This document shows, in pieces, positions 6,316-21,706 of a stretch of 64,000 nt of DNA; positions within the stretch are counted from its first letter, which is position 1, and each line of letters starts with the position of its first letter. The notes under the pieces are model-generated. The model made no database searches. It was not told the DNA's origin and saw only the letters and a program-made list of their open reading frames with translations. Source of the DNA: Pseudotabrizicola sp. Its GTDB lineage: Bacteria; Pseudomonadota; Alphaproteobacteria; Rhodobacterales; Rhodobacteraceae. The DNA is taken from NCBI RefSeq assembly GCF_030684215.1, contig NZ_JAUXOV010000077.1, positions 1-64,000 of the forward strand, in the 5' to 3' direction. Position numbers and translations under genes: made by a program.

Positions 6316-7041
6316 TCATGGCAGGGTCACTTTGCGAACCAGCGCATCAAACGCTTCGCTAAGGTAATGAACCGTCTGAGCTGCGCCCGCCTCGCGCAAA
6401 ATGACCGCATGATGAGACTCGCGTCCGATCAGATGGCTTCCACCTACGAACCCCACCGCGCGCATGCCAGCATCAACAGCGCCTTTGATTCCATGCGGTG
6501 AGTCTTCAAGGACAACGCAGTGTTGTGGTGCAACCCCCAGCCTTTCCGCCGCAAGCAGAAACACATCAGGCGCTGGCTTGCCACGGCTGACAAGATCGGC
6601 ACTGAAACGATGCGTCGGGAAAAAGCGGTCCAGACCAGAATATTCCAACGTGCGGTCAAGCCGCCGGACCGACGCGCCAGAGGCAATCGCCACCGCAATT
6701 CCCGCCTTGGCAAGCGCGACCAGCAAGTCGTCTGCACCGTTGATCGGCTGAAGACCCGCCTTGTAAGCCTTGAACAGGCGCGTCTCCATACGATCAATGA
6801 AATCCGGCGGGCAGGGTCTGCCCAAGCGATCCTCCACATCCTGAATGATTCTGGACAGGGAAACCCCAAGGTATTTCTCGCCAACCTCTGCGGCTGTCGC
6901 GTTCAGAAGTCCCGCGTGGCGCATCTCAGCGGCCACCGCTTCAAGCGAAAGCGGTTCACTGTCGACAAGGCATCCGTCCATGTCGAAAATGACCGCCCTT
7001 ACCTCTGGTCGCGGAGAAGGTTCCATGCCCGAAGCATTCAA
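6316..7041 (-). CDS. HAD-superfamily sugar-phosphate phosphatase or phosphoglucomutase-like
   Basis: The protein has about 241 residues and the classic HAD motifs: [14 protein letters not shown] (nucleophile Asp and acid Asp), ASGAS (motif II), KPAPD (motif III Lys) and LEDSPHG (motif IV acids). The cap is of the small helical type found in beta-phosphoglucomutases and 2-deoxyglucose-6-phosphatases. Likely roles are detoxification of dead-end sugar or polyol phosphates, or a mutase step. The start is uncertain. A TTG (7041) overlaps the ATPase stop codon by four bases and has GGAGA 7 nt upstream; an ATG five codons later (7026) has no clear ribosome site. Confidence 0.82.
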
Positions 7042-8099
7042 ATGCGCTTCTCCGTCTTGCGGTCGAACAGGTGAACATTGGCCGGATCAATGATAAAGCC
7101 AAGCTCGCTGCCGGGGCGCGCCGTGATACGCTCTTTCACCAGCGCGTCCATCAGGTCGTTGCCGGACCGGGCAAAAACCTGCGTTTCCGACCCCGTTGGT
7201 TCAATCACCACCACGTTCATTTTAACGCCGCCGTCGCCAATGGCGATATGTTCGGGCCGGATGCCATAGGTGACGACTTCCCCCTCGGCGGCGGTGGTGG
7301 CGGGTAAAGGCAGGGCCAGCCCATTATCCGAGACAAAGTGTTTTTGTCCGCCATGGGTCGCGATCTTGCCGTGCAGGAAATTCATCGACGGAGATCCGAT
7401 GAAGCCCGCCACAAAAACATTGTCAGGATGGTCATACAGATCCAGCGGAGAGCCGACTTGTTCGACCCGGCCATCGCGCATGACCACGATCTTGTCGGCC
7501 ATGGTCATCGCCTCAATCTGGTCATGCGTGACATAGACGATCGTTGTGCCAAGACGCTGGTGCAGTTCCTTGATCTCAAGCCGCATGGTGACACGCAGCT
7601 TGGCATCAAGATTGGACAGCGGTTCGTCGAACAGGAACACCTGCGGATCGCGCACGATGGCGCGGCCCATGGCCACGCGCTGACGCTGGCCGCCGGACAG
7701 CTCTTTTGGATACCGCTTAAGATATTTGCCAAGGTCGAGGACTTCGGCGGCCTTGGTGACCTTTTCCTCGACCTCATGCTTGGGGCGCTTGGCCATTTTC
7801 AACGGAAAGGCGATGTTGTCATAGACGGTCTTATGCGGGTAAAGCGCATAGCTTTGGAACACCATGGCGATATCGCGTTCCTTGGGCAGCACGTCGTTGA
7901 CCACGCGATCCCCAATCGAAATAGTGCCACCAGAAATCTGCTCAAGCCCTGCCAACATACGCAGCAACGTGGATTTGCCGCATCCGGACGGGCCGACCAG
8001 CACAACGAATTCACCGTCTTCGATATCAACGCTGACGCCGTGCATGACTTGCACCGAGCCATAACGTTTGGTGATATCTTTGATTGTAACACTTGCCAT
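7038..8099 (-). CDS. ABC transporter ATPase for polyols (MalK/UgpC/SmoK type)
   Basis: This 353-residue ATPase energises the polyol importer encoded upstream. Visible motifs in order are Walker [10 protein letters not shown] (near 38-46), the Q-loop [11 protein letters not shown], signature [14 protein letters not shown], Walker [17 protein letters not shown] and the switch histidine in [11 protein letters not shown]-terminal OB-type regulatory domain of about 110 residues follows, as in MalK. It starts 12 nt after the xylitol-type dehydrogenase and overlaps the HAD gene by four bases. Its closest named relative in memory is SmoK of the Rhodobacter sorbitol/mannitol system. Confidence 0.92.
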
Positions 8100-8111: not shown

Positions 8112-9164
8112 TTACTGTGGCAGAACGATCTGCATTTTCACGTCCGCCGGAGGGGCAGAGGCAGCGATTTCAAAAGCCTGCACGCTGTCGTTAAACGCAA
8201 AGGTGCGTGTGATAAGCGGCTTCACATCTATGGCGCCGGAACTGAGCATGCCAACACAGCGCGGAAACACATGGGCGTATCGAAAGATATTCTCCACCCG
8301 CGCCTCACGCACCATGGCCGCACCCGCATCGTATTGGATAGGGTCTGGCTGGCCGCCGATCATCACCACGCAACCACCCGGGGCGAGAGCTTCAAACACC
8401 GTTTTGGCGGCATGGGGCGAACCTGTCGCCTCAAACACAATGTCAGCGCCCCAGCCGTCGGTATCGCGGCGGATGATGTCGACAAGGTTTTCTGTCTTGG
8501 CGTTGACCGGAACAATGGCCCGGCTGAGCGACGCGGCGATGTCCAGCTTTTTCGGCGCAAGGTCGGTCACATAAACCCGTGCACATCCCGCCGCCAAAGC
8601 CGCAAGCGCCGTGACCAGCCCGATGGGACCAGCCCCCAACACCACAGCGTTGTCACCGGGCCTGACCCGCGCCTTGGTGGCGGCATGAACGCCGACAGCC
8701 AGCGGCTCCACCATCGCGGCCTCGGCAAAGCTGACATTGTCGGGCAGCTTGAAGGTGAACGCCTCGGGATGCACGCAGGTCGGCCGCAGGATGCCGTGAA
8801 CCGGGGGGGTGGCCCAGAACCGCACGGCAGGGTCGATGTTATACATGCCCAGCCGTGTCGCTTTTGAATTGGGGTCGGGAATGCCCGGCTCCATACAGAC
8901 ACGGTCGCCTTCTTTCAGGGTGGTGACGGCTGTGCCCACCTCTGTCACCGTGCCAGATGCTTCGTGGCCGAGGATCATCGGCGCATCGACGACAAAATGC
9001 CCGATGCGACCATGGGTATAATAATGCACGTCTGATCCGCAAATGCCGACGGTGTGCAGCTTGATCCGCACATCATGGGGTCCAAGCGTTTCTTCCACAC
9101 GGTCAATTGCCGGAAAGTCCCGCAAGCTCAGGTCGTTTTTCTTTTCAAGAACAAGCGCTTTCAT
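8112..9164 (-). CDS. Zinc-dependent polyol dehydrogenase (xylitol / sorbitol type)
   Basis: This is a medium-chain dehydrogenase of about 350 residues that should oxidise a polyol at C2, for example xylitol to D-xylulose, with NAD. Zinc ligands are visible in GICGSD (Cys42) and LGHEASG (His67, Glu68), and the cofactor fold in GAGPIG. The four-cysteine structural-zinc loop typical of alcohol dehydrogenases is absent: the segment MEPGIPDP...[10 protein letters not shown] matches the sorbitol/xylitol dehydrogenase subgroup instead. It lies inside the ABC transporter operon, and its product would be used by xylB. The start is the ATG of [10 protein letters not shown]; an upstream extension (to 9215) would run into the small membrane protein gene. 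Confidence 0.88.
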
Positions 9165-9168
9165 CCGA

Positions 9169-9414: not shown

Positions 9415-9424
9415 GGGTATGCCC

Positions 9425-10261
9425 TTATCCTTTCACTGCGCCAAAGGTCAGACCGGCCACGATATGCTTTTGCACCATGCTGAACACGATCAGCGCCGGG
9501 ATCAGGGTAAAGACAGAGATGGTCGCCATGATGCCCCATTCGGTGCCGGTGCTGGTCACATATTCCGACAGGCCGGTCGTCAGCGTGCGGGCGTTAAAGT
9601 TGGTGAGTGTGGCTGCCAGCAGGTATTCGTTCCACGCAAACACCCATGTCAGGATGAAGGTCACGGCCAGACCGGGGCGGCACAGTGGGAAGATCACTTC
9701 GGTAATCACCTGCCAGGGTGAGGCACCATCGACAAAGGCAGCCTCATCCAATTCCTTTGGTATGCCCTCAAGTGTGGGGCGCAGAGTCCAGATCGCGAAG
9801 GGCAGGTTAAAGGTGCAATAGACCAGAATCATCCCGATCCTTGTGTCCAGCAGACGCCATTCGCCAATGGTGTAAACCTGCGTCATCAACAAAAACAATG
9901 GCAGCAGGAACACGGCCGGAGGGGCCATGCGGTTGGTGATGGTCCAGAAAAAGATCGACTCTTTGCCTGCCATGTTGAAACGCGATAGCGCATAGCAGGC
10001 AAAGAACCCCAGAATGGTGCAAAGCACCGCGTTGCCTGTTGAGATGATGATCGAATTCAGCATGTAGCTGCGCAACAGCCGGTCGCCCCAGACCTTTGCA
10101 TAATTGCCCCAGAACGGATCGGTGACCCATAGATCAGGGGTTGAGAACAGTTGCACCGCAGGTTTGACCGAGATGACGAACAGCCAATAGATCGGGAACA
10201 GCGTCAGAAAGCTGACGAGGCTCCAGAAAACAAGGCCGATGATCGGGTTTTGCTTTCTCAT
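9425..10261 (-). CDS. Polyol ABC transporter inner-membrane permease (MalG type)
   Basis: The 278-residue permease has six predicted membrane helices and the EAA loop (ELDEAAFVDGASPWQVITEVIFPLCRPG) that docks on the ATPase. It is the carbohydrate-uptake-1 family partner of the permease just upstream, 4 nt away. The ATG at 10261 is preceded by AAAGGG; an upstream in-frame extension would overlap the neighbouring gene and is rejected. It ends just before the small membrane protein gene, within one continuous transcript. Confidence 0.92.
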   Translation of the reverse strand: MRKQNPIIGLVFWSLVSFLTLFPIYWLFVISVKPAVQLFSTPDLWVTDPFWGNYAKVWGDRLLRSYMLNSIIISTGNAVLCTILGFFACYALSRFNMAGKESIFFWTITNRMAPPAVFLLPLFLLMTQVYTIGEWRLLDTRIGMILVYCTFNLPFAIWTLRPTLEGIPKELDEAAFVDGASPWQVITEVIFPLCRPGLAVTFILTWVFAWNEYLLAATLTNFNARTLTTGLSEYVTSTGTEWGIMATISVFTLIPALIVFSMVQKHIVAGLTFGAVKG

Positions 10262-10265
10262 CGGC

Positions 10266-11144
10266 TTAGCCCTTTCTGCTGTTTCTTGGCGCAAGCATGG
10301 TCACATACAGCAGCCAACAGGCGACAATGGTAAGGTAAAGGACGATGACCGAAATCGTGGAGCCATAGCCGTAGTTTGTCTTTGGAAACACCTCTTTGAA
10401 GATATGCACCCCAACGAACCGCGTCGCAGAACCGGGGCCGCCGCCGGTCAGCATCCAGACCTCATCCACCGTACGAAGGGCGTCCATCAGGCGGATGAAA
10501 ACGGTGGCCACGACCGCCGGCGCAATCATCGGCAAGGTGATGTGCCAAAAGATCTGTCGCTTGTTCGCGCCGTCAATCTGGGCTTGCTCGAACGGGTCGG
10601 CGGGCAGTGACACAAGGGCCGCAATCAGCGTTAGCGTGACCAGCGGTGTCCAGTGCCAGATATCCATGATCACGATCGTGGTGAAGGCCGCTGCGGGTGA
10701 GGTGCCGATGTTCACAGAGATGCCAAACCAAAGGTTCAGGTAATGCGGGATAATGCCGATAGAGGGGGTCATCATCAGCTTCCAGACTGACCCCACAATG
10801 ATCGGAGCCATAATCAGCGGCAGGGTGTGAATGGTGCGGAAAAAGGACTTGCCTGGAAAATCGCGCATAAAAGCCTGGGCAAGAAAATAACCGATTATAA
10901 GCTCAGACACGACGGCAAAGAACACAAACATGACCGTAACACCGACCGAGTTCAGGAACGCCGCATCAAAGACAATTTTACGGAAATTGTCGGCGCCGTT
11001 GAACACCATCGTCGGATCGACGGCAAAGGGGTTCCATTGATGGAATGAAACCCACAGCACATAGACAAATGGCAAAACCCCGAAAAAGAACAGGATGACC
11101 ATTGTTGGTGCCAGCAAGATCCATCCAAGTCTATTGGATTGCAC
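10266..11144 (-). CDS. Polyol ABC transporter inner-membrane permease (MalF type)
   Basis: The 292-residue permease has six predicted helices, beginning LGWILLAPTMVILFF. The EAA loop is in the segment DPFEQAQIDGANKRQIFWHITLPMIAPA. With the following permease it forms the membrane channel for the substrate carried by the upstream binding protein. The intact helices and motifs indicate a functional subunit. The gap to the binding protein gene holds a strong stem-loop, the usual way such operons keep binding-protein levels above those of the permeases. Confidence 0.92.
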   Translation of the reverse strand: MQSNRLGWILLAPTMVILFFFGVLPFVYVLWVSFHQWNPFAVDPTMVFNGADNFRKIVFDAAFLNSVGVTVMFVFFAVVSELIIGYFLAQAFMRDFPGKSFFRTIHTLPLIMAPIIVGSVWKLMMTPSIGIIPHYLNLWFGISVNIGTSPAAAFTTIVIMDIWHWTPLVTLTLIAALVSLPADPFEQAQIDGANKRQIFWHITLPMIAPAVVATVFIRLMDALRTVDEVWMLTGGGPGSATRFVGVHIFKEVFPKTNYGYGSTISVIVLYLTIVACWLLYVTMLAPRNSRKG

Positions 11145-11219
11145 GGCGTTGCCCCCCTTAAAGGTAATCAGTTAGCGTAACGCATATACCAACCGATCCG
11201 CGATCAGGTGGCAAGTTCT

Positions 11220-11249: not shown

Positions 11250-11273
11250 ATCGACCCGGCAGGGAGCGTCCGC

Positions 11274-12710
11274 TTACTTGCGGTAGCCGAGTTCGGTCAG
11301 GGTCTGCTCGGTGATCACCGCTATCTGGTCAAGCCCGTCCGACGCGCTGAGTGCGCCGGTCAGGATCTCAAAGAACGTCGGTGCAGTCGCTTCACGCAGT
11401 TGGGCATGGAACGGATACGGAGGCGCACCGGCAAACAGATAGCCCTTGTCCTTCAGCATGTCATAGTAACCGCCCAATTCGGTGTTCATGGCGATAACTT
11501 TCGGATCGTCATAGGTGGCTGTGTTGGTCACGCGCGGCGCGGCAACGGCCCAGTCAGGCTGCACTTCGTTCTGGCCGATGTACTGAAGGAACAGTGCCGC
11601 GGCTTCCTGATTTTTGGATGTCGCAGGCAGACCGAAAGCGCCACCGTCATAATAGCCGATATACCCGTTACCGGCTTCTACTTCAGCCAGAACACCTTCG
11701 GCCAGCGGCGGAAGCGCCACGCCGACCTTGCCGACAACCAGCGACTTGTCTTTGTCAGCCGCGATCCAGCCCGCGTTTTCGCCATAGATCAGACCCTGTG
11801 CCGCGCGACCCGCGCCAAAGGTTGTGCCAGTCTCGGTCCAGGTTGACTGATCGGTTTCTGGCGGCGCGTATTGGCGCAGATCAAGCCACCACTGAAGCGC
11901 CTCCTTGGCGGTATCTGAATTCATCTGGCCGCCACTTTCCACCGATGCGGCGTAGTTGTTGCTGGCGTCGATGCCCCAGTTGTAGATCCCAAAGGTTGGA
12001 GCAACGGATTCGTAGTATTCATACCAAGATGCCGGGTGACCGGTATGGCCCTGAACGGTGGTGCCCCACAGCGCCAAGCCATTTGCCTGCCCATATTCGT
12101 AGAAGAACTTGGCGATTTCAGTATAGTCGGCGTGGGTGGTTGCAGGTGCCAGGTCTTTGCCGGTCTGTTCTTTGAAGGCGGCCTGAATGGCCGGATCGCC
12201 GAACAGGTCGGTGCGGTAAAGGTAAATCTTGATAAAGGCTTCCATCGGCACGCCATAAAGGTTGCCTTTTTCATCCTTGAAGTAGTCGGCGAAGGTGGTG
12301 AAATTCGCCTCATCATAGGTGGCGGCTTTCAGCTGGGGATTGGCCGCCAACAGTCCGCTCAGGTCGGTCAGGAAATTGCGTGACAGGTAGGAATAGATGA
12401 TGTCCTGCTCGATATAGACCATGTCATAGATGCCGGTTCCGGCTTCCATGTCCTTGATCGCTTTGTCGAACATCTGGTCCCACGACGTGGTTTCCACGTC
12501 GACGCGGATACCGGTCAGTTCCTCAAATTGCGGGGCCAGCACTTCGCGGATGAAAAGTGACGGCGGCGACGATTCCGTCACGCCGCGCAGCGTTACGCCT
12601 TGATATGGTTCGGCCGCTTTTTTCCACCAGTCCGCATCCTGCGCGAAGCCCGCAGACGCGGCAAGGGTCAGCGCCAGCACCGAAGTGCCGAGCTTGAGAG
12701 CAAAGTTCAT
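11274..12710 (-). CDS. Periplasmic polyol-binding protein of the ABC transporter
   Basis: This first gene of the operon encodes a 478-residue extracellular solute-binding protein of the carbohydrate (family 1) type, with a Sec signal peptide ([23 protein letters not shown]). Mature features fit large sugar binders: [19 protein letters not shown] near residue 75 and [16 protein letters not shown] in the second lobe. It should capture a polyol such as mannitol, sorbitol, arabinitol or xylitol; the ligand cannot be read from sequence. The ATG follows GGAGGAGACCCAA, an excellent ribosome site. An in-frame extension upstream runs into the control region and is discarded. Confidence 0.92.
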
Positions 12711-12933
12711 TTGGGTCTCCTCCCATTTATTTTTGCAGGAGCGGACGGCGAGCCAAACGTTCTCCCACGGTCGAATCGCGTCATCCCCTGCACTCAAAAT
12801 GCATATGTATGACACTCCATGCAAGTGCATTTTTTCACCTGTATGGCTTGCAATACACTTGTGAGGCATGCCACGGTTGATATAACGATCTGGCTGTAAC
12901 GGGGCGCAGTCAGCCGCCTTGGGAGGAATAGAA
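12711..12933 (+). promoter_or_regulatory. Divergent control region with inverted repeats, probable SorC-family operator
   Basis: This gap separates the leftward ABC operon from the rightward regulator. Two sets of inverted half-sites lie between 12815 and 12865: TGCAAG (12820-12825) with CTTGCA (12847-12852), and CAAGTG (12822-12827) with CACTTG (12856-12861). Paired half-sites of this kind suit a tetrameric SorC-type regulator controlling both directions. Exact promoters are not clear by eye. Confidence 0.45.
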
Positions 12934-13893
12934 ATGCCACGCGAACCTGTGGCGGACGGCGAGGAGTTCATCGCTGAAGTCTGCTGGCACTACTACGTGA
13001 ACGAAATGACCCAAGCAGAGATTGCCCGGATCATGGACGTGACCCGGCTGCGGGTGAATCAGGCAATCCAGCGCGCCAAGGCGCTGGGAATCATCAAGAT
13101 TCAGATCGAATCCCCATTTCTGCCCCGGTTTGAGCTGCAAAAGCGCTTGGTGGATGAGTTGCAAATCAAACGTGCTGTGATCTGCCCCGCAAATCACAAT
13201 GACTACGAGTTTCATCGAAGCGTAGGCGCGGCCCTTGCCGAACATCTGACTGAACGGCTGCGCACCTCCGAATGGAAATCCTTTGGTGTGTCCTGGGGCC
13301 TGACGCTGGACTCTGCCATCCGAAAACTGCAACGCCAAACCCATCCTGATCTGGAAGTCGTGTCGATTCTGGGCGGGACCGCGCAGGGGTCAACTTTCAA
13401 TTCCTTTGGCATTGCTTCAGGTTTTGCTGATGTTCTGGGCGCGCATTACTCCATTCTGACAGCCCCGATCTATCTATCCGCAGGAATAGATCGCGACGTG
13501 TTCCTGTCGCAGTATTCCTTGCAAGAGCATTTCAAGAAGTTCGAAACGCTGGATGCGGTTTTGCTGACCTGTTCCAACGTGTCCGAAAAGTCCTTTCTGG
13601 TGTCGCATGGGCTGCCGCAAGGGCTGACGGTAGAGACGCTAAAGGCCTCAGGGGCGATTGGCGATGTGCTTGGCCAGTTCCTGGACAAAGACGGCAACTC
13701 TGTCTCGAGGGCGATTGACGACCGGGCTATCGGCATGCCGCTGGCCATGGTGCTGGATGTGCCTGAAAAGATCCTCTCTGCCGCCGGCCCTCACAAGGTG
13801 GAAATCATTCGCGCGGCCTGTCAGCGCGGGCTGGTGGATACATTGATCACAGATGATGTGACCGCCGAACTGCTTCTGACCCCGATCGGTTAA
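12934..13893 (+). CDS. SorC/DeoR-type sugar-binding transcriptional regulator
   Basis: The 319-residue regulator has an N-terminal helix-turn-helix ([19 protein letters not shown], near residues 29-47) and a C-terminal sugar-phosphate-binding domain related to SorC and CggR. Family blocks include [10 protein letters not shown] near residue 117, VVSILGG and an ending VDTLITDD near residue 305. These proteins sense a phosphorylated sugar intermediate. It is divergent from the ABC operon and followed by two polyol dehydrogenase genes, so it most likely controls both. The ATG follows GGGAGGAATAGAA at good spacing; a TTG five codons upstream is unlikely. Confidence 0.88.
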
Positions 13894-13966
13894 GGCCAAC
13901 ATTTGCACCTTCCGCAAAGTCTTCGCCGCAATCGGGCACCCTTTGCAACCCACGAAAGACCCGCCA

Positions 13967-14698
13967 ATGAATCAGCAATTCGCAGGAAAAACCGTCATCA
14001 TCACTGGCGCGGGTAAAGGCATCGGTCGGGCCTGCGCGCAGATCATGGCCGCACGCGGCGCGAGTGTGATCGCAATGGCGCGCACGCAGGCAGATCTTGA
14101 TGCCCTTGCGGCCGAGTTCGGGGCCAAGGGGATTGCGGTGGACCTTGCAGACAGCCCCGCAGCCCGCGGCGCGATGAAGGCAGCAGGACCAGCCGACTTT
14201 CTGATCAATTGCGCCGGAACCAACGTTCTGGAATCTGTGCTGGACATGACAGAAGATGGGTATGAGGCCGTCATGGGGATCAACCTGCGCGCCGCCCTGA
14301 TCTGCGCGCAGGAATTTGCACGCGCACGCATTGCGGCTGGCGGGGGCGGCGCGATCATCAACGTTACCTCGATTGCCGGGCATCGCGGCTTTCAGGATCA
14401 TATGGTCTATGCCGCCTCCAAAGCAGGGCTGGAGGGCGCAACCCGTGTGATGGCCAAAGAGCTGGGGCCGCATGGCATCCGCGTCAATGCCGTCGCCCCC
14501 ACCGTCACCATGACCGAACTTGCCGCCGCTGCTTGGTCGGAACCCTTCCGAAAAGACCCGATGATGGCCCGCCACCCCCTTGGCCGCTTTGCCGAAGTTG
14601 AGGACGTGGCCCGCACCATTGCCATGCTGCTGTCAGACGATGCCCCGGTCATCACCGGGGCCGTGCTGCCGATTGACGGCGGTTTTCTCGCAGTTTGA
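13967..14698 (+). CDS. L-xylulose reductase-type SDR (DCXR-like)
   Basis: This short-chain dehydrogenase of 243 residues has the cofactor motif TGAGKGIG (residues 13-20) and a catalytic Ser135, Tyr148, Lys152. It aligns almost without gaps to the animal dicarbonyl/L-xylulose reductase as I recall it: ARTQADLDAL, the GPHGIRVNAVAPT block, PLGRFAEVEDV and the ending LPIDGGF. That family interconverts L-xylulose and xylitol with NADP(H), and the Arg in ARTQ fits NADP binding. Placed between the SorC regulator and ribitol dehydrogenase, it probably links L-xylulose to the xylitol and D-xylulose branch. The start is the ATG of MNQQFAG; a TTG eight codons upstream is possible. Confidence 0.75.
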   Translation: MNQQFAGKTVIITGAGKGIGRACAQIMAARGASVIAMARTQADLDALAAEFGAKGIAVDLADSPAARGAMKAAGPADFLINCAGTNVLESVLDMTEDGYEAVMGINLRAALICAQEFARARIAAGGGGAIINVTSIAGHRGFQDHMVYAASKAGLEGATRVMAKELGPHGIRVNAVAPTVTMTELAAAAWSEPFRKDPMMARHPLGRFAEVEDVARTIAMLLSDDAPVITGAVLPIDGGFLAV

Positions 14699-14728
14699 CC
14701 AAATACACATTCACCCGGAGGAAAGACG

Positions 14729-15457
14729 ATGACCCAATCCCTGACCGGCAAAGTGGCTGCCGTGACCGGTGCCGCTTCTGGCATTGGCCTTGCAACCACG
14801 CGCGCCCTGCTGAACGCGGGCGCCAAGGTTGTGATGGTTGATTACAATGCGACCGCGCTTGAAAAGCTGACGGCCGAACTTGGCCCTAACGCGATTGCGC
14901 AGCAGACCAACCTGCTGGACGTAAAAAGCTGCGCCGCCATGGTGCCCGAGATACTGGCAAAGGTGGGACAGATCGACATTCTGCACTGCAACGCAGGCAG
15001 CTATATCGGCGGCGATCTGATCGAGACGGACACCGATACAATTGACCGGATGCTGAACCTGAACGTCAATGTGGTGATGAAAAACGTCCGCGACGTGATC
15101 CCGCACATGCAAGAGCGCGGCACGGGCGATATCATTGTGACCGCTTCGGTCGCCGGACATATGCCCATACAGTGGGAGCCGGTCTATTCGGCGTCAAAAT
15201 GGGCGATGACCTGTTTTGTTCAGACAATGCGGAGGCAGTTGAACAAGCACGGAATCCGCGTCGGGCAGGTTTCGCCGGGGCCCGTGATCTCGGCGCTGCT
15301 GGCGGATTGGCCCGAAGAAAATCTGCGCAAGGCCAAGGAGGCCGGCGCGCTGATGGACCCCGAAGAAATTTCGGATGCGATCATGTATATGCTAAGTCGC
15401 CCGCGCACGGTGACGATCCGCGATATGGTGATTCTGCCGACCAATTTTGACATTTGA
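14729..15457 (+). CDS. Ribitol 2-dehydrogenase-type SDR
   Basis: The 242-residue SDR should oxidise ribitol to D-ribulose with NAD. The cofactor motif TGAASGIG is at residues 13-20, the acidic Asp38 in MVDYN favours NAD over NADP, and the catalytic residues are Ser140, Tyr153 and Lys157. Segments NAGSYIGGDL, WEPVYSASK, LLADWPEE and the C-terminal TVTIRDMVILPTN follow the Klebsiella/Enterobacter ribitol dehydrogenase as I remember it. A good ribosome site (CCCGGAGGAAAGACG) precedes the ATG, 30 nt after the L-xylulose reductase. No D-ribulokinase is visible nearby, so its product may be handled by XylB or by epimerisation. Confidence 0.78.
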   Translation: MTQSLTGKVAAVTGAASGIGLATTRALLNAGAKVVMVDYNATALEKLTAELGPNAIAQQTNLLDVKSCAAMVPEILAKVGQIDILHCNAGSYIGGDLIETDTDTIDRMLNLNVNVVMKNVRDVIPHMQERGTGDIIVTASVAGHMPIQWEPVYSASKWAMTCFVQTMRRQLNKHGIRVGQVSPGPVISALLADWPEENLRKAKEAGALMDPEEISDAIMYMLSRPRTVTIRDMVILPTNFDI

Positions 15458-15465
15458 ATCACTTT

Positions 15466-15490
15466 TGGCGGCCAGATCCACTGGCCGCCA
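15466..15490. terminator. Bidirectional terminator between convergent dehydrogenase genes
   Basis: TGGCGGCCAG (15466-15475) pairs perfectly with CTGGCCGCCA (15481-15490) over a 5-nt loop. It occupies the 40-nt gap between two convergent SDR genes and could stop transcripts from both sides. Confidence 0.7.
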
Positions 15491-15497
15491 CACTCGC

Positions 15498-16232
15498 CTA
15501 ACGGATGGTATATCCCCCATCCAGCACCATGTTTTCACCGGTCACGATGCCTGCCTGTGCCGACGCAAGGTAGAACGCCGCATGCGCGATTTCCGCGGGC
15601 TTTGCAAAGCGCCCGACCGGGATTTCGGCCTTGGCGCGCGCGCCCTTTTCACCCGCCCAACCGACAAGTGCCATCGGCGTTTCAACCACCGTGGGCGAAA
15701 TCGCATTCACGGTGATGCCATACCTTGCCCATTCCAAAGCCAGCACCTTCGTCAGACCGATCAGCCCAGCCTTGCTGGCCCCATAAGCCGCATGTTCCGC
15801 AATCGCGACCATCCCGGCTTGCGATGCGATGTTCACAATGCGCCCACGCCCCGAGGCTTTCAAAAACGGCAGCGCCGCCGCCGCCATCAACCACGGCGCA
15901 CGCAGGTTTATGGCTTGGGTGCGGTCCCAATCCTCGACCGATAGCTGCTCTGCCGGGGCAACGATGCCAAGACCTGCGTTGTTGATCAGCACATCAATGC
16001 CCATTTCTGTGCCGACCCTTGCCGAGACGCGGGCGATATCTTCGGGCTGCGACAGATCGCAGATCCATGCCCGGTGCCGTGCGCCAAGGCGGGCCGCAAG
16101 TGGCGCGGGGTCGGTGATGTCGATAAGCGCCAGACGTGCGCCAGCAGCCGCAAACAGTTCTGCCATGGCGGTGCCAATGCCGCCCGACGCCCCGGTGATC
16201 AGAACGCTGCGGTCCTTAAGGTCAGCCGTCAT
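15498..16232 (-). CDS. SDR family polyol/sugar dehydrogenase
   Basis: This short-chain dehydrogenase of 244 residues has the motif TGASGGIG (13-20), catalytic Ser137, Tyr150 and Lys154, and a C-terminal GGYTIR. Asp at the end of the second strand (LALIDIT) favours NAD. It is the last gene of the ROK-controlled operon, 12 nt after another SDR. Its exact substrate cannot be read; galactitol, threitol or related polyols and their ketoses are candidates from the operon context. The ATG has AAAGGGG upstream; a GTG one codon earlier is equally in frame. Confidence 0.75.
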   Translation of the reverse strand: MTADLKDRSVLITGASGGIGTAMAELFAAAGARLALIDITDPAPLAARLGARHRAWICDLSQPEDIARVSARVGTEMGIDVLINNAGLGIVAPAEQLSVEDWDRTQAINLRAPWLMAAAALPFLKASGRGRIVNIASQAGMVAIAEHAAYGASKAGLIGLTKVLALEWARYGITVNAISPTVVETPMALVGWAGEKGARAKAEIPVGRFAKPAEIAHAAFYLASAQAGIVTGENMVLDGGYTIR

Positions 16233-16244
16233 CACGATCCCCTT

Positions 16245-17003
16245 TCAATGCGTTGTATACCCACCATCAGCGGTCAAAACTGTGCCCGTCACATAGCTGG
16301 ACGCGGGCGCGCACAAGAACAGGGCGCAATTGGCCATCTCCTCGGGTTGCCCGAACCGGCCCATTGGGGTGTTTTCGGTCCACACCTTGTTCCACGCAGC
16401 GTTGGCAATGCCGCCCTTTGTCATGTCGCTGACCACATAGCCCGGTGCCAAAGCGTTCACGCGGATGCCGCGGCTGGCGTATTCAAAGGCCATCACACGG
16501 GTCATCTGATGAACTGCCGCCTTTGAGGCGTTATAGGCCACCTGAAGCTGCGGTTGGTTCGCCACTTCGGCCGAAATAGAGCCTATGTTCAGGATAACGC
16601 CCGACTGCTTTTTCAACATTGGCTTGATCGCCGCCCGAGCGATGCGAAAAGGCGCGACAAAGTTCGTGTCGTTGATCGCCGCAAGACGCGCATCGTCGAA
16701 GTCGTGAAAGTCACCGCTGTCGGCAATCCCCGCATTGTTAACCAGAATGTCCAGCCCGCCAAACCGGTCAAGCGTTGCGGCAACGATCCGCTCTGGCGTG
16801 GCGGGATCAGTGACATCACCCGCGACCCAAGCAGCACAATCGTTGGCGCAAAGTTCCTGCGCGTCGGCGGTCAGACTGCGACCTGTCACCATGACCTTGG
16901 CCCCGGCCTCGACAAAAAGCCGGGCGATGGCAAGACCTATGCCCCGGTTGCCGCCAGTGACCAGAGCCACCTTTCCATCCAGACGAAACTGTTCCAATGC
17001 CAT
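16245..17003 (-). CDS. Galactitol/mannitol 2-dehydrogenase-like SDR
   Basis: The 252-residue SDR has the cofactor motif TGGNRGIG (16-23), catalytic Ser142, Tyr157 and Lys161, and the C-terminal end ADGGYTTH. Segments such as AYNASKAAVHQMTR, GIRVNALAPGYV and ASSYVTGTVL resemble galactitol dehydrogenase of Rhodobacter sphaeroides, which makes tagatose from galactitol. The Arg in VTGRS points to NADP use, unlike most NAD-dependent relatives, so the physiological direction may differ. It follows gatZ by 21 nt within the ROK-controlled operon, consistent with a galactitol or tagatose pathway. Confidence 0.72.
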   Translation of the reverse strand: MALEQFRLDGKVALVTGGNRGIGLAIARLFVEAGAKVMVTGRSLTADAQELCANDCAAWVAGDVTDPATPERIVAATLDRFGGLDILVNNAGIADSGDFHDFDDARLAAINDTNFVAPFRIARAAIKPMLKKQSGVILNIGSISAEVANQPQLQVAYNASKAAVHQMTRVMAFEYASRGIRVNALAPGYVVSDMTKGGIANAAWNKVWTENTPMGRFGQPEEMANCALFLCAPASSYVTGTVLTADGGYTTH

Positions 17004-17024
17004 AGCTGCCTCCTTTTGCAGTGT

Positions 17025-18299
17025 TCAGTTTTTGAGATTGCAGGCTGCGTGATAGCTGCAAAGGCTTTGCGTCACCCGCCAGATCAGCAAAGCCTCAGGG
17101 TCAAGCGGCGCATCTGCAAACCCAGCAGCGGCTGGCCAATGTTGCCAGAACAGCGGCAAAGGAACCGATCGTCCCTGCAACGCAGCGATCAGCCGCTCAA
17201 CCGCACCTCTGGCTGCATCATTCACCCAGTAGTAACGAATGCGGTCAGACAGCGAGTAATGCCGCAACAACGCCTGCTCAGCGGAATCGCCGGCATAGTG
17301 GCGATCCCATTGACCGGGGTCTGCCAGCATGATCCGTTCCATCTCGGTCTTAAGCGGTCGGTCGCCATACCCCGGCACCAGATCAGAGGCGATCAGATCC
17401 AGCGCATAAAGCGCCTCACGCAGAACAAATGTCAGCTCTGGTCCGACTTTCAGAATGGCAAAGCCATCTTGGACCAGTTCCGAAAGCGGCGCAGTTCCCT
17501 GATAGTCGGTGGAATGCGCTTCGAATACCAAACCGTCTTCGCCATCCAGAACCCGGACCAGCGGTTGTGCTTTGTCGCGCAGATAGCGCACCACGTTATG
17601 ATTGCCGAACTCCACCCCAGGCTGCACAACAATGCCGATCACCCGGTCAAAGGCATCGCCCAGACCCGCCGCGTTGAAGCAATCCCGATGCACGGCGATG
17701 GTCTTTCGGGCCGCGTCGGGGTCGGTCGGCGGCACATCTCGCAACGCGTGATCGGCCCCACCAGGGGGGGGGACTTCAGTGCCGATGACATAGCGGGGCA
17801 GATCGCCGCCCTGATCGCGCGCAATCCGTTCGGCAACGGCGGCCAGACGCACCGCACGCGCGGCAGTTGCGGCATCATCCAGTGCCAAAGGCTCGCCCGC
17901 GCATCCCATCGACGCATCAAGGTGGATCTTGCGAAACCCGGCAGCGACATAGGCTGCCACCATCTTCTCGGCTTCAACCAGCGCCGTTTCGGCTGACTGA
18001 TCCCGCCACGGATTCGGGCCAAGATGATCACCACCCAAGATAACACGATCCATCGGGCAGGATTCGTCGCCCGCAATCCGCTCCACCAAGGCCACAAAAT
18101 CAGCCGGGCGCATCCCGGTATAACCGCCCAGATGGTTGACCTGATTACAGGTGGCCTCAATCAGAACCATCGACGACGTCGCCGCGCCGTGACGCAACGC
18201 TGCGCGCAACACGACCGGATGCGCGGAACAGACCGAGGTGATCCCCCGTGGCATGCCGCTCACCCGCCAGGCAACAAGCTGATCCAGATAGCCGCTCAT
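17025..18299 (-). CDS. gatZ: GatZ/KbaZ family protein (tagatose-6-phosphate epimerase or aldolase partner)
   Basis: The 424-residue protein belongs to the GatZ/KbaZ family. In enterobacteria it is called the non-catalytic subunit of tagatose-1,6-bisphosphate aldolase. In Agrobacterium a stand-alone relative was described as a D-tagatose-6-phosphate 4-epimerase making fructose 6-phosphate. Visible blocks are GITSVCSAHPVVLRA, LIEATCNQVNHLGGYTGM, LGGDHLGPNPWR, HLDASMGCAG, FEAHSTDYQ and a KVGPELTF segment. No GatY/KbaY aldolase lies in the window, which favours the epimerase role. Its start overlaps the kinase stop by four bases (ATGA). Confidence 0.85.
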   Translation of the reverse strand: MSGYLDQLVAWRVSGMPRGITSVCSAHPVVLRAALRHGAATSSMVLIEATCNQVNHLGGYTGMRPADFVALVERIAGDESCPMDRVILGGDHLGPNPWRDQSAETALVEAEKMVAAYVAAGFRKIHLDASMGCAGEPLALDDAATAARAVRLAAVAERIARDQGGDLPRYVIGTEVPPPGGADHALRDVPPTDPDAARKTIAVHRDCFNAAGLGDAFDRVIGIVVQPGVEFGNHNVVRYLRDKAQPLVRVLDGEDGLVFEAHSTDYQGTAPLSELVQDGFAILKVGPELTFVLREALYALDLIASDLVPGYGDRPLKTEMERIMLADPGQWDRHYAGDSAEQALLRHYSLSDRIRYYWVNDAARGAVERLIAALQGRSVPLPLFWQHWPAAAGFADAPLDPEALLIWRVTQSLCSYHAACNLKN

Positions 18300-19270
18300 T
18301 CGCCAAGCCTTTTCGCTGAAAGGATAAATGCATCAAGATCTTCGCGCGACCCGGCCCCTTCCATTGGGCCAAGCCGCGTCACGTTTCTGGCCCCGGCGGC
18401 ACAGCCATAGGTCAGCGCCTGCTGCACAGGCATACCCAGCCTGCGACAGGTCAGATAGGCCCCGCCAAAGCAGTCACCTGCCCCGGTCGGGTCCACCTCA
18501 TTCACGGCAAAAGCGGCGGCATCGGTGCGGCTGCCATCGCGTTCAAAACACGTCGCGCCCTTTGCGCCGCGCTTCAACACGATCTCGGACACACCCTTTT
18601 CGAACAGACGCGCAACAGCCTTGGCTTCGCCCTCGGTGCCAGCCGCAAGTTCCAGTTCTTCGCCAGATGGCAGCAGCAGATCAGACATTTCGACCAGCCG
18701 CACAAAGCGGGATCTGGTCGCATCATCGTATTTCAACTCCTTGCGCAAATTCGGATCAAGCGACACCGACCCACCGCGGCCCTTGATACTCTGCGCGGCC
18801 TTTTCGATAACGTCCCAAGCGTTGGGCATCGACAGGGCCGACCCCATGACATGCAAATGTCCCGCACGATCCACAACATCCGCCACCTGTCTGCTCCATC
18901 CAAAGCGTGCCGCAGCCGAAGTGGCGATGTTGAACACAAAATCACGCGCACCATCAGCACGGTATCGGACAAAGGCACTGCCGGTCGGCATGAAAGGGTC
19001 TATCGCGATGGCCGAAATATCGACCCCATCGCGGCGCAGACGGTCAAGATTGACGCGTCCGAAATCGTCATCCCCCACCGCACCGATCATGGCCGCCGCC
19101 CCACCGATGCGGCCGCATTGGTCAATAAAGATCGCGGGCGCACCGCTTGGAAACGGGCCAATCAGGGGCTGGGCCTCACGAAATCCGGTCCCGATCGTGG
19201 TGGCAACAATCTCGACCAAAATTTCGCCGACACAAACGGTCGGCCCCAATGCGTCGGGCGCGACACTCAT
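18296..19270 (-). CDS. PfkB-family sugar kinase, probable tagatose or related ketose kinase
   Basis: This 324-residue ribokinase-like kinase has the N-terminal VCVGEILVEIV, the glycine-rich GGAAAMIGAVGDDDFG block and the C-terminal catalytic motif DPTGAGDCFGG (near residue 260). It is coupled to gatZ by a four-base overlap. Agrobacterium galactitol loci pair GatZ with a tagatose kinase of this family, so phosphorylation of D-tagatose or a C3 epimer is the best guess. The start follows AGGGAGAATTTG at normal spacing; a TTG one codon upstream is disregarded. Confidence 0.82.
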   Translation of the reverse strand: MSVAPDALGPTVCVGEILVEIVATTIGTGFREAQPLIGPFPSGAPAIFIDQCGRIGGAAAMIGAVGDDDFGRVNLDRLRRDGVDISAIAIDPFMPTGSAFVRYRADGARDFVFNIATSAAARFGWSRQVADVVDRAGHLHVMGSALSMPNAWDVIEKAAQSIKGRGGSVSLDPNLRKELKYDDATRSRFVRLVEMSDLLLPSGEELELAAGTEGEAKAVARLFEKGVSEIVLKRGAKGATCFERDGSRTDAAAFAVNEVDPTGAGDCFGGAYLTCRRLGMPVQQALTYGCAAGARNVTRLGPMEGAGSREDLDAFILSAKRLGE

Positions 19271-19319
19271 CAAATTCTCCCTGCCAGTGATTGTGCCTGT
19301 CGCACCCCAACGCCAGACA

Positions 19320-20510
19320 TCATTTCGGCCCTCGCAGATGCATCTCGTTCTCTAGCGACAAAAACCGTTGATGCAGCATACAGGCAGCCCCAAAGGCAGC
19401 CCCACTTTCCGCAGATTTATGCACAACAATCTTCGGGCAGGGAAAGGTGCGTGCTTGCAGTTCCCCCATGCGGTTCAAAACCTGTGTCGCGACCATCGGA
19501 TACAGCGCCGCAAGTCCACCCCCCAGCACGACCCGGTTCGGATCAAGCAGGCGGCAGGCCGACACAATGGCCTGTGCCAGATCTTGCGCCCAGTCTGAGG
19601 CGATGGCCACGGCCTGCGGATCAGACCGCTGAACGGCGTTCAGAAAGGATCGGATGGATACGGGCACGCCACCGTTTGCCACGCGATACCTCTGCAAAAG
19701 GTGATCCCGGCCCAGAACCTCCTCCAATTCGGCACCGTCGCGAATATGCATGTGGCCGATCTCTCCAGCCAGCCCATGCCCCCCCCGGTAAAGCTTGCCA
19801 TCAATGACAATACCCCCACCGACCCCGGACTCAAGGACCATGAACAGCGTCACGCCTGCCCTGTTGGCCCGGTCACAATAACTTTCGCCAAACGCAAATG
19901 CATTCGCATCATTCTCAATCATAACCGGGAATTCAGAGCGCAGGGCAAGGTCCACGAGGGACCGCAAATCCTCATTTTCCCAGCCCAGCAACGGCGCCGT
20001 GTGTATCAGACCGGCTTCTTCGATCTGCGCCGGGACGGCAAGGCCAAAGCCTTCAACACTGTCGCGCAAGTCTTGCGGCATCCCGTCAAAGGCCTGCGCA
20101 ACGGCCTGCTCAACCGCGATGGCCACTGGCACTGACCGGCCATCAAAAGGCTCGATCCGACAGTGCGAATAGGTACCCTTCAGATTCATCCGCAGGGTCG
20201 TGATATGTTCCACCCCAATTTCCACCCCCACAAAACAGGCGGCGTCCGGTTGCAGTTCCAACCGCACACCGGGCCGGCCTGCCCGCACAGGCGTGTCCGT
20301 TTGGGGTGCAGTGTCGGGCACTTCGCGGACCAGATCACTTGCCAGCAACTCTGCAATGATATGCCCGGAAGATGATCGGTTCAGACCAAGATGCCGCGCC
20401 AGCGCCGCGCGGCTTAGCTGCCCCTGATCGAACAGAGCCTGAAGCGCCGCAACCACATTGCTATGCCGGATCAGGCGCGGCGCGCCGCCAGAAAGATCAG
20501 CTTTTGTCAT
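19320..20510 (-). CDS. ROK-family transcriptional repressor lacking the zinc cysteines
   Basis: The 396-residue regulator has an N-terminal winged helix (SRAALARHLGLNRSSSGHIIAEL, near 33-55) and a ROK sugar-binding domain with IENDANAFAFGE and SGVGGGIVIDG. The usual zinc site CxCGxxGC after the GH motif is missing: the segment IGHMHIRDGAELEEVLGRDH contains no cysteine. The N-terminal phosphate loop is also altered (VGVEIGVEH), so it is not a kinase. It is the second gene of the tagatose/polyol operon and probably controls it through the palindrome at 21479-21507, with a free sugar or polyol as inducer. Confidence 0.85.
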   Translation of the reverse strand: MTKADLSGGAPRLIRHSNVVAALQALFDQGQLSRAALARHLGLNRSSSGHIIAELLASDLVREVPDTAPQTDTPVRAGRPGVRLELQPDAACFVGVEIGVEHITTLRMNLKGTYSHCRIEPFDGRSVPVAIAVEQAVAQAFDGMPQDLRDSVEGFGLAVPAQIEEAGLIHTAPLLGWENEDLRSLVDLALRSEFPVMIENDANAFAFGESYCDRANRAGVTLFMVLESGVGGGIVIDGKLYRGGHGLAGEIGHMHIRDGAELEEVLGRDHLLQRYRVANGGVPVSIRSFLNAVQRSDPQAVAIASDWAQDLAQAIVSACRLLDPNRVVLGGGLAALYPMVATQVLNRMGELQARTFPCPKIVVHKSAESGAAFGAACMLHQRFLSLENEMHLRGPK

Positions 20511-20551
20511 GTCGACCCGTGTCTACCCAGCCCATGAAATGCCCTGCCCGG

Positions 20552-21439
20552 TCAGACCTGCGCATTGATACGCGCGCGCATGACAGCCTCAGCCCAGCGC
20601 TGTTCGATGAACTGGCGCGCATGGGCGGCCAGTGGGTTGTTGTCATCCCATGTGTCGCGCCAGATCCCGCAGGCCAGCGACAGACCTTCATCGACAATCG
20701 CCTTGGAGAAGCTTTCGAACACGATATCGCGGTCATGAAACCCGATCTCGACAAGGGCATCAAAAATTGCCGGAAAGTCGATTGTGCCAGTGCCAAGATA
20801 ACCACGATAGTTTTCGTTAAAGTGGAAATACGCCAGTTTGTCGCCTGCCATGCGGATGGCAGCCGCCGGGCTGGCTTCTTCGATATTCATGTGAAACGTA
20901 TCGAGATGCAGGAACACATCATCGCGCCCTGTATCTTTCAAGAATTGCATCCCCTGCGCGGTGGTGTTCAACAGGTTCGATTCGAAGCGGTTGACCACCT
21001 CCAGAACAATCTGGACGCCGCAATCTTTGGCCAGTTCTGCCGTGGCAGCAATCGCCTCTGCGCTGTTCATCCAACCGGCCTGCGTGGGCATCCGGTCATA
21101 CTTGCCGTGCATGGAATACAAAATGCCGCCCAGACGAATGCCACCGATATCTCGCACGGCCCTGACCGCATCGGCCAACATCGCCGTACCCTTTGCAACC
21201 ACTGCGCTGTCTTCGCTGGACACATCGGCATCGTGGGGCAACCCCATGGTGACGACAATCTCTATGCCTAGCGACTGCGCCTTGCGTGCCAGACGATCAA
21301 GATCAAACCGTTCAGGCCGCAAATAGGCAAATTCGATCATGCGATATCCATGCTCGGCCGATTTCTCAAGCGCGGACTCCAGCCCGCTTTGCGTGTGTCC
21401 ATTCGTCCAGACAAATGAATGTATCCCAAGCCGGCGCAT
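20552..21439 (-). CDS. D-tagatose 3-epimerase / D-psicose epimerase family ketose isomerase
   Basis: This TIM-barrel enzyme of 295 residues should invert C3 of free ketoses (for example tagatose-sorbose, fructose-psicose, or L-xylulose-L-ribulose). The metal and acid-base residues of Pseudomonas cichorii tagatose 3-epimerase map cleanly: Glu147, Glu153 (EVVNRFE), Asp180, His183 (LDTFH), His206 and Arg212 (FHFNENYRG), Glu242 (FESFS). It leads the ROK-controlled operon. The start at 21439 follows GAGGGGGGAAATC; an upstream frame extension crosses the operator palindrome and is rejected. The natural ketose is unproven. Confidence 0.85.
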   Translation of the reverse strand: MRRLGIHSFVWTNGHTQSGLESALEKSAEHGYRMIEFAYLRPERFDLDRLARKAQSLGIEIVVTMGLPHDADVSSEDSAVVAKGTAMLADAVRAVRDIGGIRLGGILYSMHGKYDRMPTQAGWMNSAEAIAATAELAKDCGVQIVLEVVNRFESNLLNTTAQGMQFLKDTGRDDVFLHLDTFHMNIEEASPAAAIRMAGDKLAYFHFNENYRGYLGTGTIDFPAIFDALVEIGFHDRDIVFESFSKAIVDEGLSLACGIWRDTWDDNNPLAAHARQFIEQRWAEAVMRARINAQV

Positions 21440-21478
21440 GATTTCCCCCCTCGGAATCGGATCATCCGGCAAGCGTAT

Positions 21479-21507
21479 CATATTTGTTGTGGCGCACAAC
21501 AAATATG
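21479..21507 (-). promoter_or_regulatory. 29-bp perfect palindrome, candidate operator of the ROK repressor
   Basis: CATATTTGTTGTG (21479-21491) and CACAACAAATATG (21495-21507) are exact reverse complements around GCG. The centre lies about 55 nt upstream of the epimerase start. A/T-rich arms with a central G/C step are the usual shape of NagC/Mlc/ROK sites. Confidence 0.75.
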
Positions 21508-21706
21508 AAGCTCCGTTCTGTATTGGGGCCACTGACCGACCACAGCAGCCGGCAAGTGGCGAAAGTCGTTGCAACCGCTTGAAGGTGTCGCAAACAAATG
21601 GCGGGCAAAGCTGAACTATGTTCTTCACAAACCGGGGGCCAAATCAAAACCCCCTTCATTCCCCCCCCATTTGCCCCTAAACAACCAGCAAGAGGGAGAG
21701 TCCGTC

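What the first reader, a model, noticed from the sequence alone, without database searches (positions are those of the whole stretch)
15498..21439. Free-ketose 3-epimerase + ROK repressor + PfkB kinase + GatZ + two SDRs: a galactitol/tagatose-like route with an extra epimerase
Six same-strand genes with short gaps or overlaps encode steps that fit: polyol to ketose (SDRs), C3 epimerisation of the free ketose (all residues of P. cichorii tagatose 3-epimerase present), phosphorylation, and C4 epimerisation by a stand-alone GatZ (as described for Agrobacterium galactitol use). A C3 epimerase placed before the kinase would let the cell use allulose, sorbose or altritol-type substrates. No aldolase partner (GatY/KbaY) is visible, supporting an epimerase role for GatZ. 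I know of no characterised operon with exactly this set.
Basis: partly seen in the sequence, partly recalled or inferred. Interest (0 to 1): 0.75.

Follow-up and report, generated by a model that had tools for sequence, protein, structure and literature searches.

The report
Rare-sugar cassette feeding tagatose into glycolysis
A conserved bacterial gene set pairs a sugar-flipping enzyme with a known two-step tagatose pathway, probably so that the cell can also eat rare sugars such as D-sorbose; it suggests a natural job for an enzyme family known mostly from biotechnology.

Summary
The six genes are real and in place. The finding is larger than reported: it recurs as a cassette with its own ABC transporter. 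A genome-contig scan kept 80 epimerase loci (a capped list); 32 are at least 64% identical to the window's epimerase. In those 32, TagK is found in 29, GatZ in 26, ROK in 29, the ribitol/sorbitol-type SDR in 29 and the binding protein in 30. Of the 48 less similar loci none has TagK and one has GatZ. The 6 genomes without GatZ in the fetched locus all carry one elsewhere, against 37 of 249 and 42 of 244 genomes in two order samples. The epimerase forms a branch apart from M. loti L-ribulose 3-epimerase. The kinase passes NCBI's tagatose-kinase cut-off; GatZ has the published catalytic residues and no GatY/KbaY-level partner. An operator half-site tracks ROK: 27 of 29 ROK loci, 0 of 6 SorC loci. 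Best model: polyol to D-sorbose (SDR), to D-tagatose (epimerase), to tagatose 6-phosphate (TagK), to fructose 6-phosphate (GatZ). The tagatose link is well supported; D-sorbose as substrate is inference. New variant of the Agrobacterium/Sinorhizobium tagatose route.

The parts
20552..21439 (-). ketose 3-epimerase (T3E), proposed D-sorbose/D-tagatose 3-epimerase
   Evidence: PF01261; best solved relative 3vyl M. loti L-ribulose 3-epimerase, 310 bits, 53% identity; in a branch of 39 rows
19320..20510 (-). ROK-family transcriptional regulator
   Evidence: PF00480 142 bits; homologue in 29 of 32 cassette loci
18296..19273 (-). PfkB kinase, tagatose kinase (TagK); ATG at 19270
   Evidence: NF049991 554 bits against cut-off 420
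17025..18299 (-). stand-alone GatZ, proposed D-tagatose 6-phosphate 4-epimerase
   Evidence: PF08013 547 bits; the seven residues named for E. coli GatZ present: C24, E48, D91, H92, E175, H262, K284
16245..17003 (-). SDR, relative of R. sphaeroides galactitol dehydrogenase (SDR2)
   Evidence: best PDB match 2wdz/2wsb/3lqf, 191 bits
15498..16235 (-). SDR of the GolD/DthD type (SDR1)
   Evidence: NF005309 291 bits against cut-off 286; best PDB match 4npc 'sorbitol dehydrogenase'
21478..21508 (-). 31-bp near-perfect palindrome, proposed ROK operator ahead of the epimerase
   Evidence: half-site TTTGTTG in 27 of 29 ROK-type loci, 0 of 6 SorC-type loci
14729..15457 (+). SDR, ribitol/sorbitol 2-dehydrogenase type (SDRb)
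   Evidence: 5jo9 337 bits, 61% identity; homologue in 29 of 32 cassette loci
13943..14698 (+). SDR (SDRa)
   Evidence: NF005465 454 bits against cut-off 331; homologue in 22 of 32 cassette loci
12919..13893 (+). SorC/DeoR-type regulator (start codon not settled)
   Evidence: PF04198 154 bits; elsewhere found in place of ROK: 3 of 32 loci and 3 of 3 Rhodobacterales loci
11274..12710 (-). ABC transporter solute-binding protein
   Evidence: homologue in 30 of 32 cassette loci; no PDB match at 1e-10
10266..11144 (-). ABC permease
   Evidence: clusters with genes of 34 other loci
9425..10258 (-). ABC permease (MalG-like)
   Evidence: NF008231 119 bits, under its cut-off of 261; clusters with genes of other loci
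8112..9164 (-). zinc-type (MDR) polyol dehydrogenase
   Evidence: sorbitol/xylitol dehydrogenases are its best PDB matches; homologue in 15 of 32 cassette loci
7038..8099 (-). ABC transporter ATPase (UgpC type)
   Evidence: NF008653 499 bits against cut-off 432

Best explanation
This is a catabolic cassette for rare hexitols or ketohexoses. The ABC transporter imports the polyol or ketose. The dehydrogenases oxidise polyols to free ketoses. The 3-epimerase turns D-sorbose into D-tagatose. The kinase makes D-tagatose 6-phosphate and so pulls the epimerisation. GatZ, alone, epimerises C4 to fructose 6-phosphate, which enters central metabolism. ROK represses the epimerase operon from the palindrome just ahead of it; in this window SorC probably controls the transporter and the SorC-SDRa-SDRb arm. 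Shown here: gene content, conservation, co-occurrence with GatZ, association of the operator with ROK. Inferred: that the epimerase serves D-tagatose (strong), that its in vivo substrate is D-sorbose (moderate), which polyols are used (weak), who regulates what (moderate).
For: 32 loci with an epimerase of 64% identity or more: TagK in 29 (one of them, L124, in pieces) and GatZ in 26, against 0 and 1 of the 48 less similar loci. GatZ elsewhere in all 6 genomes that lack it in the fetched locus, against 37 of 249 and 42 of 244 genomes in two order samples; TagK sits next to that GatZ in the three Aureimonas genomes. In the window's order 4 of 244 genomes have a close epimerase, all 4 with GatZ within 3 kb; in the order of L077's genome 4 of 249, all 4 within 3.5 kb. 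A second architecture (epimerase, ribose-type ABC, ROK, TagK, GatZ, two divergent SDRs) in 3 genomes. TagK cut-off passed. GatZ residues present, no GatY-level aldolase. PMC11907403 passages: E. coli tagatose formation was lost only on gatZ deletion. PMC8167858 Table 2: MlLRE works on D-tagatose (24%) and D-sorbose (6%), less on D-allulose (2.3%), D-fructose (1.7%) and L-tagatose (2.4%). PMC12193009 passages: a relative of SDRb makes D-sorbose from L-glucitol; galactitol dehydrogenase makes D-sorbose from D-iditol (17%). Operator half-site: 27 of 29 ROK loci, 0 of 6 SorC loci, background 0.04 per 320 bp.
Against: MlLRE prefers L-ribulose (100%) and L-xylulose (42%), and is also active on D-ribulose (20%) and L-allulose (14%); the window enzyme is only 53% identical to it. 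L-glucitol, D-iditol and D-sorbose are scarce in nature (recalled). SDRb is 61% identical to the B. japonicum L-glucitol enzyme, whose own gene has no epimerase, TagK or GatZ homologue within about 9 kb in the 3 Bradyrhizobium loci fetched; its yield of D-sorbose was 1.15% and it gave no ketose from galactitol, allitol or D-glucitol in that study. Three Aureimonas loci have neither TagK nor GatZ near the epimerase. In the second band (57-59% identity) 2 of 6 fetched loci have no TagK or GatZ nearby. Genomes share ancestry, so the counts are not independent trials.
Confidence: 0.55

Rival explanations
1. D-altritol/allitol route: dehydrogenases oxidise D-altritol at either end to D-psicose (allulose) and D-tagatose, or allitol to D-psicose; the epimerase returns D-psicose to D-fructose while TagK-GatZ handle D-tagatose.
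For: R. sphaeroides galactitol dehydrogenase gives D-psicose (11%) plus D-tagatose (3.2%) from D-altritol (PMC12193009); SDR2 here is its relative. Some relatives epimerise D-allulose well: AgDAE 63.5%, MetLRE 65% of their L-ribulose activity.
Against: The closest solved relative has only 2.3% activity on D-allulose. The epimerase alone would then have no need of GatZ, yet it tracks GatZ closely, unless altritol always yields both ketoses.
Confidence: 0.22
2. [quoted passage not shown] TagK-GatZ handle galactitol independently.
For: MlLRE's best substrates are L-ribulose and L-xylulose. A xylulokinase (522 bits against cut-off 380) and a long-chain polyol dehydrogenase like D-arabinitol dehydrogenase (328 bits, under its cut-off of 600) lie nearby at 3345-6269, and L166 keeps both.
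Against: The M. loti-type group is a separate branch and none of its 33 genome loci has TagK or GatZ nearby, while XylB at 40% identity or more was seen in 0 of the 32 cassette loci (flanks of 10 kb at most, so more distant copies would be missed).
Confidence: 0.1
3. L-series galactitol route: SDR2 makes L-tagatose from galactitol, the epimerase makes L-sorbose, and another SDR reduces it to D-glucitol, then D-fructose.
For: Galactitol dehydrogenase makes L-tagatose (55%, PMC12193009) and is SDR2's closest solved match; the several SDRs could act as an oxidase-reductase pair.
Against: MlLRE has 2.4% activity on L-tagatose and a trace on L-sorbose; this route would not need TagK or GatZ; SDR2 at 55% identity or more is in only 9 of 32 loci.
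Confidence: 0.08

Closest known systems
D-altritol/galactitol pathway of Agrobacterium tumefaciens C58 (Wichelecki et al. 2015; contents recalled, paper not held; title seen in the reference list of PMC12193009)
   Same: Polyol dehydrogenase to D-tagatose, PfkB tagatose kinase, PF08013 D-tagatose 6-phosphate 4-epimerase without GatY, ABC transporter.
   Different: As recalled, no ketose 3-epimerase step; I did not compare the C58 locus itself.
Galactitol/tagatose operon of Sinorhizobium meliloti pSymB (Kohlmeier et al. 2019; not held; title seen in the reference list of PMC10433430, details recalled)
   Same: Kinase plus GatZ homologue turning tagatose into fructose 6-phosphate; a polyol dehydrogenase (SmoS) oxidises galactitol (PMC10433430, passages).
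   Different: As recalled, no 3-epimerase described; I did not compare the locus itself.
L-glucitol catabolism of Stenotrophomonas maltophilia / Pseudomonas sp. Ac (recalled); galactitol to D-tagatose to D-sorbose in Pseudomonas sp. ST-24 (PMC3869271, passages)
   Same: D-sorbose/D-tagatose 3-epimerisation of free ketoses after a polyol dehydrogenase.
   Different: The Stenotrophomonas route (recalled) goes from D-tagatose to D-galactose and the De Ley-Doudoroff pathway, not through TagK and GatZ.
M. loti L-ribulose 3-epimerase (PDB 3vyl)
   Same: 53% identical; the eight motif residues are shared.
   Different: Separate, well-supported branch; none of the 33 genome loci on it has TagK/GatZ nearby; 19 positions fixed differently, of which T64, Y108 and Y114 may lie near the sugar pocket (my estimate by residue offset from the MetLRE residues, not an alignment).

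Membership tests
Tagatose kinase / GatZ (PF08013) tagatose 6-phosphate epimerase pathway | Kinase passes the curated tagatose-kinase model | tested here: met
   NF049991 554 bits, cut-off 420
Tagatose kinase / GatZ (PF08013) tagatose 6-phosphate epimerase pathway | GatZ with the zinc and catalytic residues proposed for E. coli GatZ | tested here: met
   C, E, D, H, E, H, K all present, placed by motif (residues from PMC11907403 passages)
Tagatose kinase / GatZ (PF08013) tagatose 6-phosphate epimerase pathway | No GatY/KbaY aldolase partner | tested here: met
   Two PF01116 proteins in the genome, neither over the GatY/KbaY cut-offs
Tagatose kinase / GatZ (PF08013) tagatose 6-phosphate epimerase pathway | Enzyme activity on D-tagatose and its 6-phosphate | not testable with these tools
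   needs assays
D-tagatose/D-allulose/L-ribulose ketose 3-epimerase family | TIM-barrel family match and conserved metal/catalytic residues | tested here: met
   PF01261 122 bits; eight residues invariant in 77 of 77
D-psicose 3-epimerase equivalog NF051856 | Score over the curated cut-off | tested here: not met
   168.8 bits, cut-off 300
M. loti-type L-ribulose 3-epimerase | Falls in the same branch as 3vyl | tested here: not met
   separate branches, support 100/100 and 100/99
Tagatose-bisphosphate aldolase (GatYZ/KbaYZ) pathway | Catalytic GatY/KbaY subunit | tested here: not met
ROK sugar-responsive repressor | ROK domain | tested here: met
   PF00480 142 bits
ROK sugar-responsive repressor | Binds an operator at the promoter it regulates | not testable with these tools
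   a candidate operator is conserved with ROK (27 of 29 loci); binding needs an assay

The most novel reading that the evidence does not exclude
The cassette is a dedicated phosphorylating D-sorbose pathway (L-glucitol or D-iditol to D-sorbose to D-tagatose to tagatose 6-phosphate to fructose 6-phosphate), possibly a funnel for all four D-ketohexoses. It would define a natural role for a distinct subfamily of ketose 3-epimerases, spread across Rhizobiales-type and Rhodobacterales genomes in two operon architectures with different kinds of ABC transporter.
Probability: 0.4. Interest if true: 0.6.

Novelty: new variant of a known kind. Interest (0 to 1): 0.5.

Why it matters
Ketose 3-epimerases are used to make allulose and tagatose, but as far as I know (recalled; no search was made for this point) their natural roles are mostly unassigned. 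A conserved operon whose 32 examined genomes all carry GatZ (26 in the locus; 6 elsewhere) gives such an enzyme group a testable physiological role, an enzyme subgroup to assay for D-sorbose/D-tagatose specificity, and one more reason to annotate stand-alone GatZ as an epimerase and not as an aldolase subunit.

Tried and rejected
Allulose equivalog: not filed there because NF051856 is missed by a wide margin. GatY partner elsewhere: rejected. I expected the B. japonicum L-glucitol dehydrogenase gene to lie in a cassette like this one; it does not in the 3 Bradyrhizobium loci fetched, so it counts only as a related enzyme. A strict palindrome search found no comparable palindrome ahead of the epimerase in the other loci, apart from weaker ones in L078 and L033; only the half-site comparison showed the shared operator. 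A class-wide sample was too sparse to help: 2 of 385 genomes with TagK at 1e-80 and 6 of 385 with an epimerase at 1e-60, the own genome included in both, and the tool scored at most 5 PfkB candidates per genome. The binding protein gave no solved relative. Wichelecki 2015, Kohlmeier 2019 and Fredslund 2016 are not held; what I say of their contents is recalled or comes from citing papers. Literature searches showed me listings and starts of abstracts; no title there describes an operon of this set, but I read passages of six papers only and one section, and the library is open-access only. Structure prediction and fold search were not used.
Full report
Observation. Pfam and NCBIfam name a sugar-isomerase TIM barrel, a ROK regulator, a tagatose kinase (NF049991, 554 bits against a cut-off of 420), GatZ (PF08013) and two SDRs. 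The genome holds one GatZ. It has two class II aldolases: one passes the fructose-bisphosphate aldolase model TIGR01521; the other scores far under the GatY and KbaY cut-offs and lies beside genes that by eye look like IolB and a PfkB kinase.

GatZ. E. coli tagatose production was abolished only by deleting gatZ, and the authors propose a zinc retro-aldol C4 epimerisation with named residues (PMC11907403, passages; fbaA, also a candidate, could not be deleted there). All seven residues are present in the window's GatZ, placed by motif.

Epimerase. The best solved relative is M. loti L-ribulose 3-epimerase, 3vyl, 53% identical over 278 residues. In PMC8167858 Table 2 (section read) that enzyme, MlLRE, works best on L-ribulose (100%) and L-xylulose (42%); then D-tagatose 24%, D-ribulose 20%, L-allulose 14%, D-sorbose 6%, D-xylulose 5.4%, L-fructose 4.1%, L-tagatose 2.4%, D-allulose 2.3%, D-fructose 1.7%, L-sorbose trace. 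So among D-hexuloses it favours the tagatose/sorbose pair. Eight motif positions are invariant in 77 of 77 sequences, while 19 positions are fixed differently between the window's group and the M. loti group.

Conservation. A genome-contig scan kept the best 80 epimerase loci of a list cut by the tool. By identity they split into 32 at 64% or more and 48 below. Homologues in the fetched loci (thresholds in the script), among the 32: TagK 29, GatZ 26, ROK 29, SorC 3, SDRb 29, SDRa 22, SDR2 9, SDR1 5, binding protein 30, MDR 15, MtlK 0, XylB 0. Among the 48: SDR2 1, SDRb 1, GatZ 1, TagK 0. One of the 29 TagK loci (L124) matches in pieces only. The transporter genes run divergently from the epimerase operon in most of the 32. 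In the window's order GatZ is in 42 of 244 genomes and a close epimerase (71% or more) in 4 of 244, all 4 within 3 kb of GatZ; of the 24 further genomes with a distant epimerase (36% or less) none has it near a GatZ, judged from the listed coordinates. In the order of L077's genome GatZ is in 37 of 249 and the close epimerase in 4 of 249, all 4 within 3.5 kb of GatZ.

Natural experiments. Six of the 32 loci have no GatZ in the fetched stretch (Jiella, Mesorhizobium waimense, Stagnihabitans, three Aureimonas). All six genomes carry GatZ elsewhere (how far away was not measured), and in the three Aureimonas genomes TagK sits next to it. Against a background of 15-17% this is unlikely by chance even if the six are taken as four lineages; the reservation is that GatZ-rich genera would raise the true background. 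It argues that the epimerase depends on the TagK-GatZ pair, hence that it produces D-tagatose. The C3 epimer of D-tagatose is D-sorbose.

Tree. With 94 rows, the window's epimerase falls in a branch of 39 (support 100/100): 32 with GatZ and TagK nearby, 3 TagK only, 1 GatZ only, 3 with neither. The M. loti branch (34 rows with 3vyl, 100/99) has neither in any of its 33 genome loci. A nearby set shows a second architecture in 3 genomes (L163-L165): epimerase, ribose-type ABC transporter, ROK, TagK, GatZ, with divergent SDR1 and SDRb homologues. L169 has epimerase, ROK and TagK without GatZ at the locus; L170 and L171 have neither TagK nor GatZ. These six are the loci fetched of 9 genomes in the 57-59% band; 8 of the 9 genomes carry a GatZ.

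Dehydrogenases. SDR2's closest solved relative is R. sphaeroides galactitol dehydrogenase. SDRb's is 5jo9, 61% identical; I take it to be the B. japonicum enzyme of PMC12193009 by recall of the PDB entry, whose listed name is only 'Ribitol 2-dehydrogenase'. PMC12193009 (passages) reports that galactitol dehydrogenase makes L-tagatose from galactitol, D-sorbose from D-iditol, and D-psicose with D-tagatose from D-altritol, and that the B. japonicum enzyme makes D-sorbose from L-glucitol at 1.15% and no ketose from galactitol, allitol or D-glucitol. These point to ketoses of the right set but do not fix the natural polyol. The 5jo9-type gene itself has no epimerase, TagK or GatZ homologue nearby in the 3 Bradyrhizobium loci fetched.

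Regulation. In 35 of 35 loci counted (the 32 and L033-L035) there is either ROK (29) or SorC (6), never both; the window has both. A palindrome, TCATATTTGTTGTGCGCCACAACAAATATGA, lies 39-69 bp ahead of the epimerase start. Its half-site TTTGTTG, on either strand, occurs within 320 bp upstream of the epimerase in 27 of 29 ROK loci (49 sites; missing in L084 and L087) and in 0 of 6 SorC loci, upstream of either the epimerase or SorC; the background is 0.04 per 320 bp. It is absent from the SorC/binding-protein gap in the window. So ROK most likely controls the epimerase operon and SorC the other arm.

Origin of the arrangement. Quick FastTree gene trees place the window's SorC (0.998), binding protein (0.99) and MDR (0.96) with L036, a Rhodobacterales locus with no epimerase in the fetched 20 kb; the epimerase (0.81) and SDR2 (0.67) with the ROK-type locus L077 of Mesorhizobium; SDRb (0.94) with L166; GatZ (0.84) with L037; TagK nearest L166. 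The window therefore looks like a mosaic, perhaps a merger of a SorC-type and a ROK-type locus, which would explain its two regulators; this is a suggestion, not a demonstrated history.

Mechanism and verdict. Polyol or ketose uptake, oxidation to free ketose, C3 epimerisation to D-tagatose, phosphorylation, C4 epimerisation to fructose 6-phosphate. The link of the epimerase to D-tagatose is well supported by linkage and co-occurrence; D-sorbose as its substrate follows by stereochemistry and by the nearest enzyme's profile on D-hexuloses, but was not assayed. The core route is known from Agrobacterium and Sinorhizobium (recalled, with citations seen; their loci were not compared). I saw no description of the added epimerase in such an operon in the listings, which cover an open-access library only.

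Noticed in passing
window 12919-21439: The locus carries both a SorC-type and a ROK regulator, although the 35 related loci counted have only one of them; gene trees suggest a mosaic locus.
   Followed up: partly
L163, L164, L165 (about 4800-17000): Second architecture of the same module with a ribose-type ABC transporter in place of the MalFGK-type one (Pfam run on L165 only).
   Followed up: partly
L003:1495-2334: PF01116 aldolase of the window's genome beside genes that by eye look like IolB and a PfkB kinase, so probably an inositol-pathway aldolase.
   Followed up: partly
window 3345-6269: Xylulokinase (over the XylB cut-off) and a long-chain polyol dehydrogenase follow the transporter; L166 keeps the same neighbours, but none of the 32 cassette loci shows them within the fetched flanks.
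   Followed up: partly
L124: In this Rhizobium plasmid locus TagK matches in four pieces and the epimerase in two, so genes may be broken or the assembly faulty.
   Followed up: no
window 17025-18299: GatZ scores 567.5 against the TIGR02810 cut-off of 568.8; that model is named for a non-catalytic aldolase subunit, which looks like a misleading label for such proteins.
   Followed up: partly
L109-L139: The M. loti-type epimerases of rhizobia sit in other neighbourhoods, some with weak SorC and sugar-kinase homologues; their role is open.
   Followed up: no
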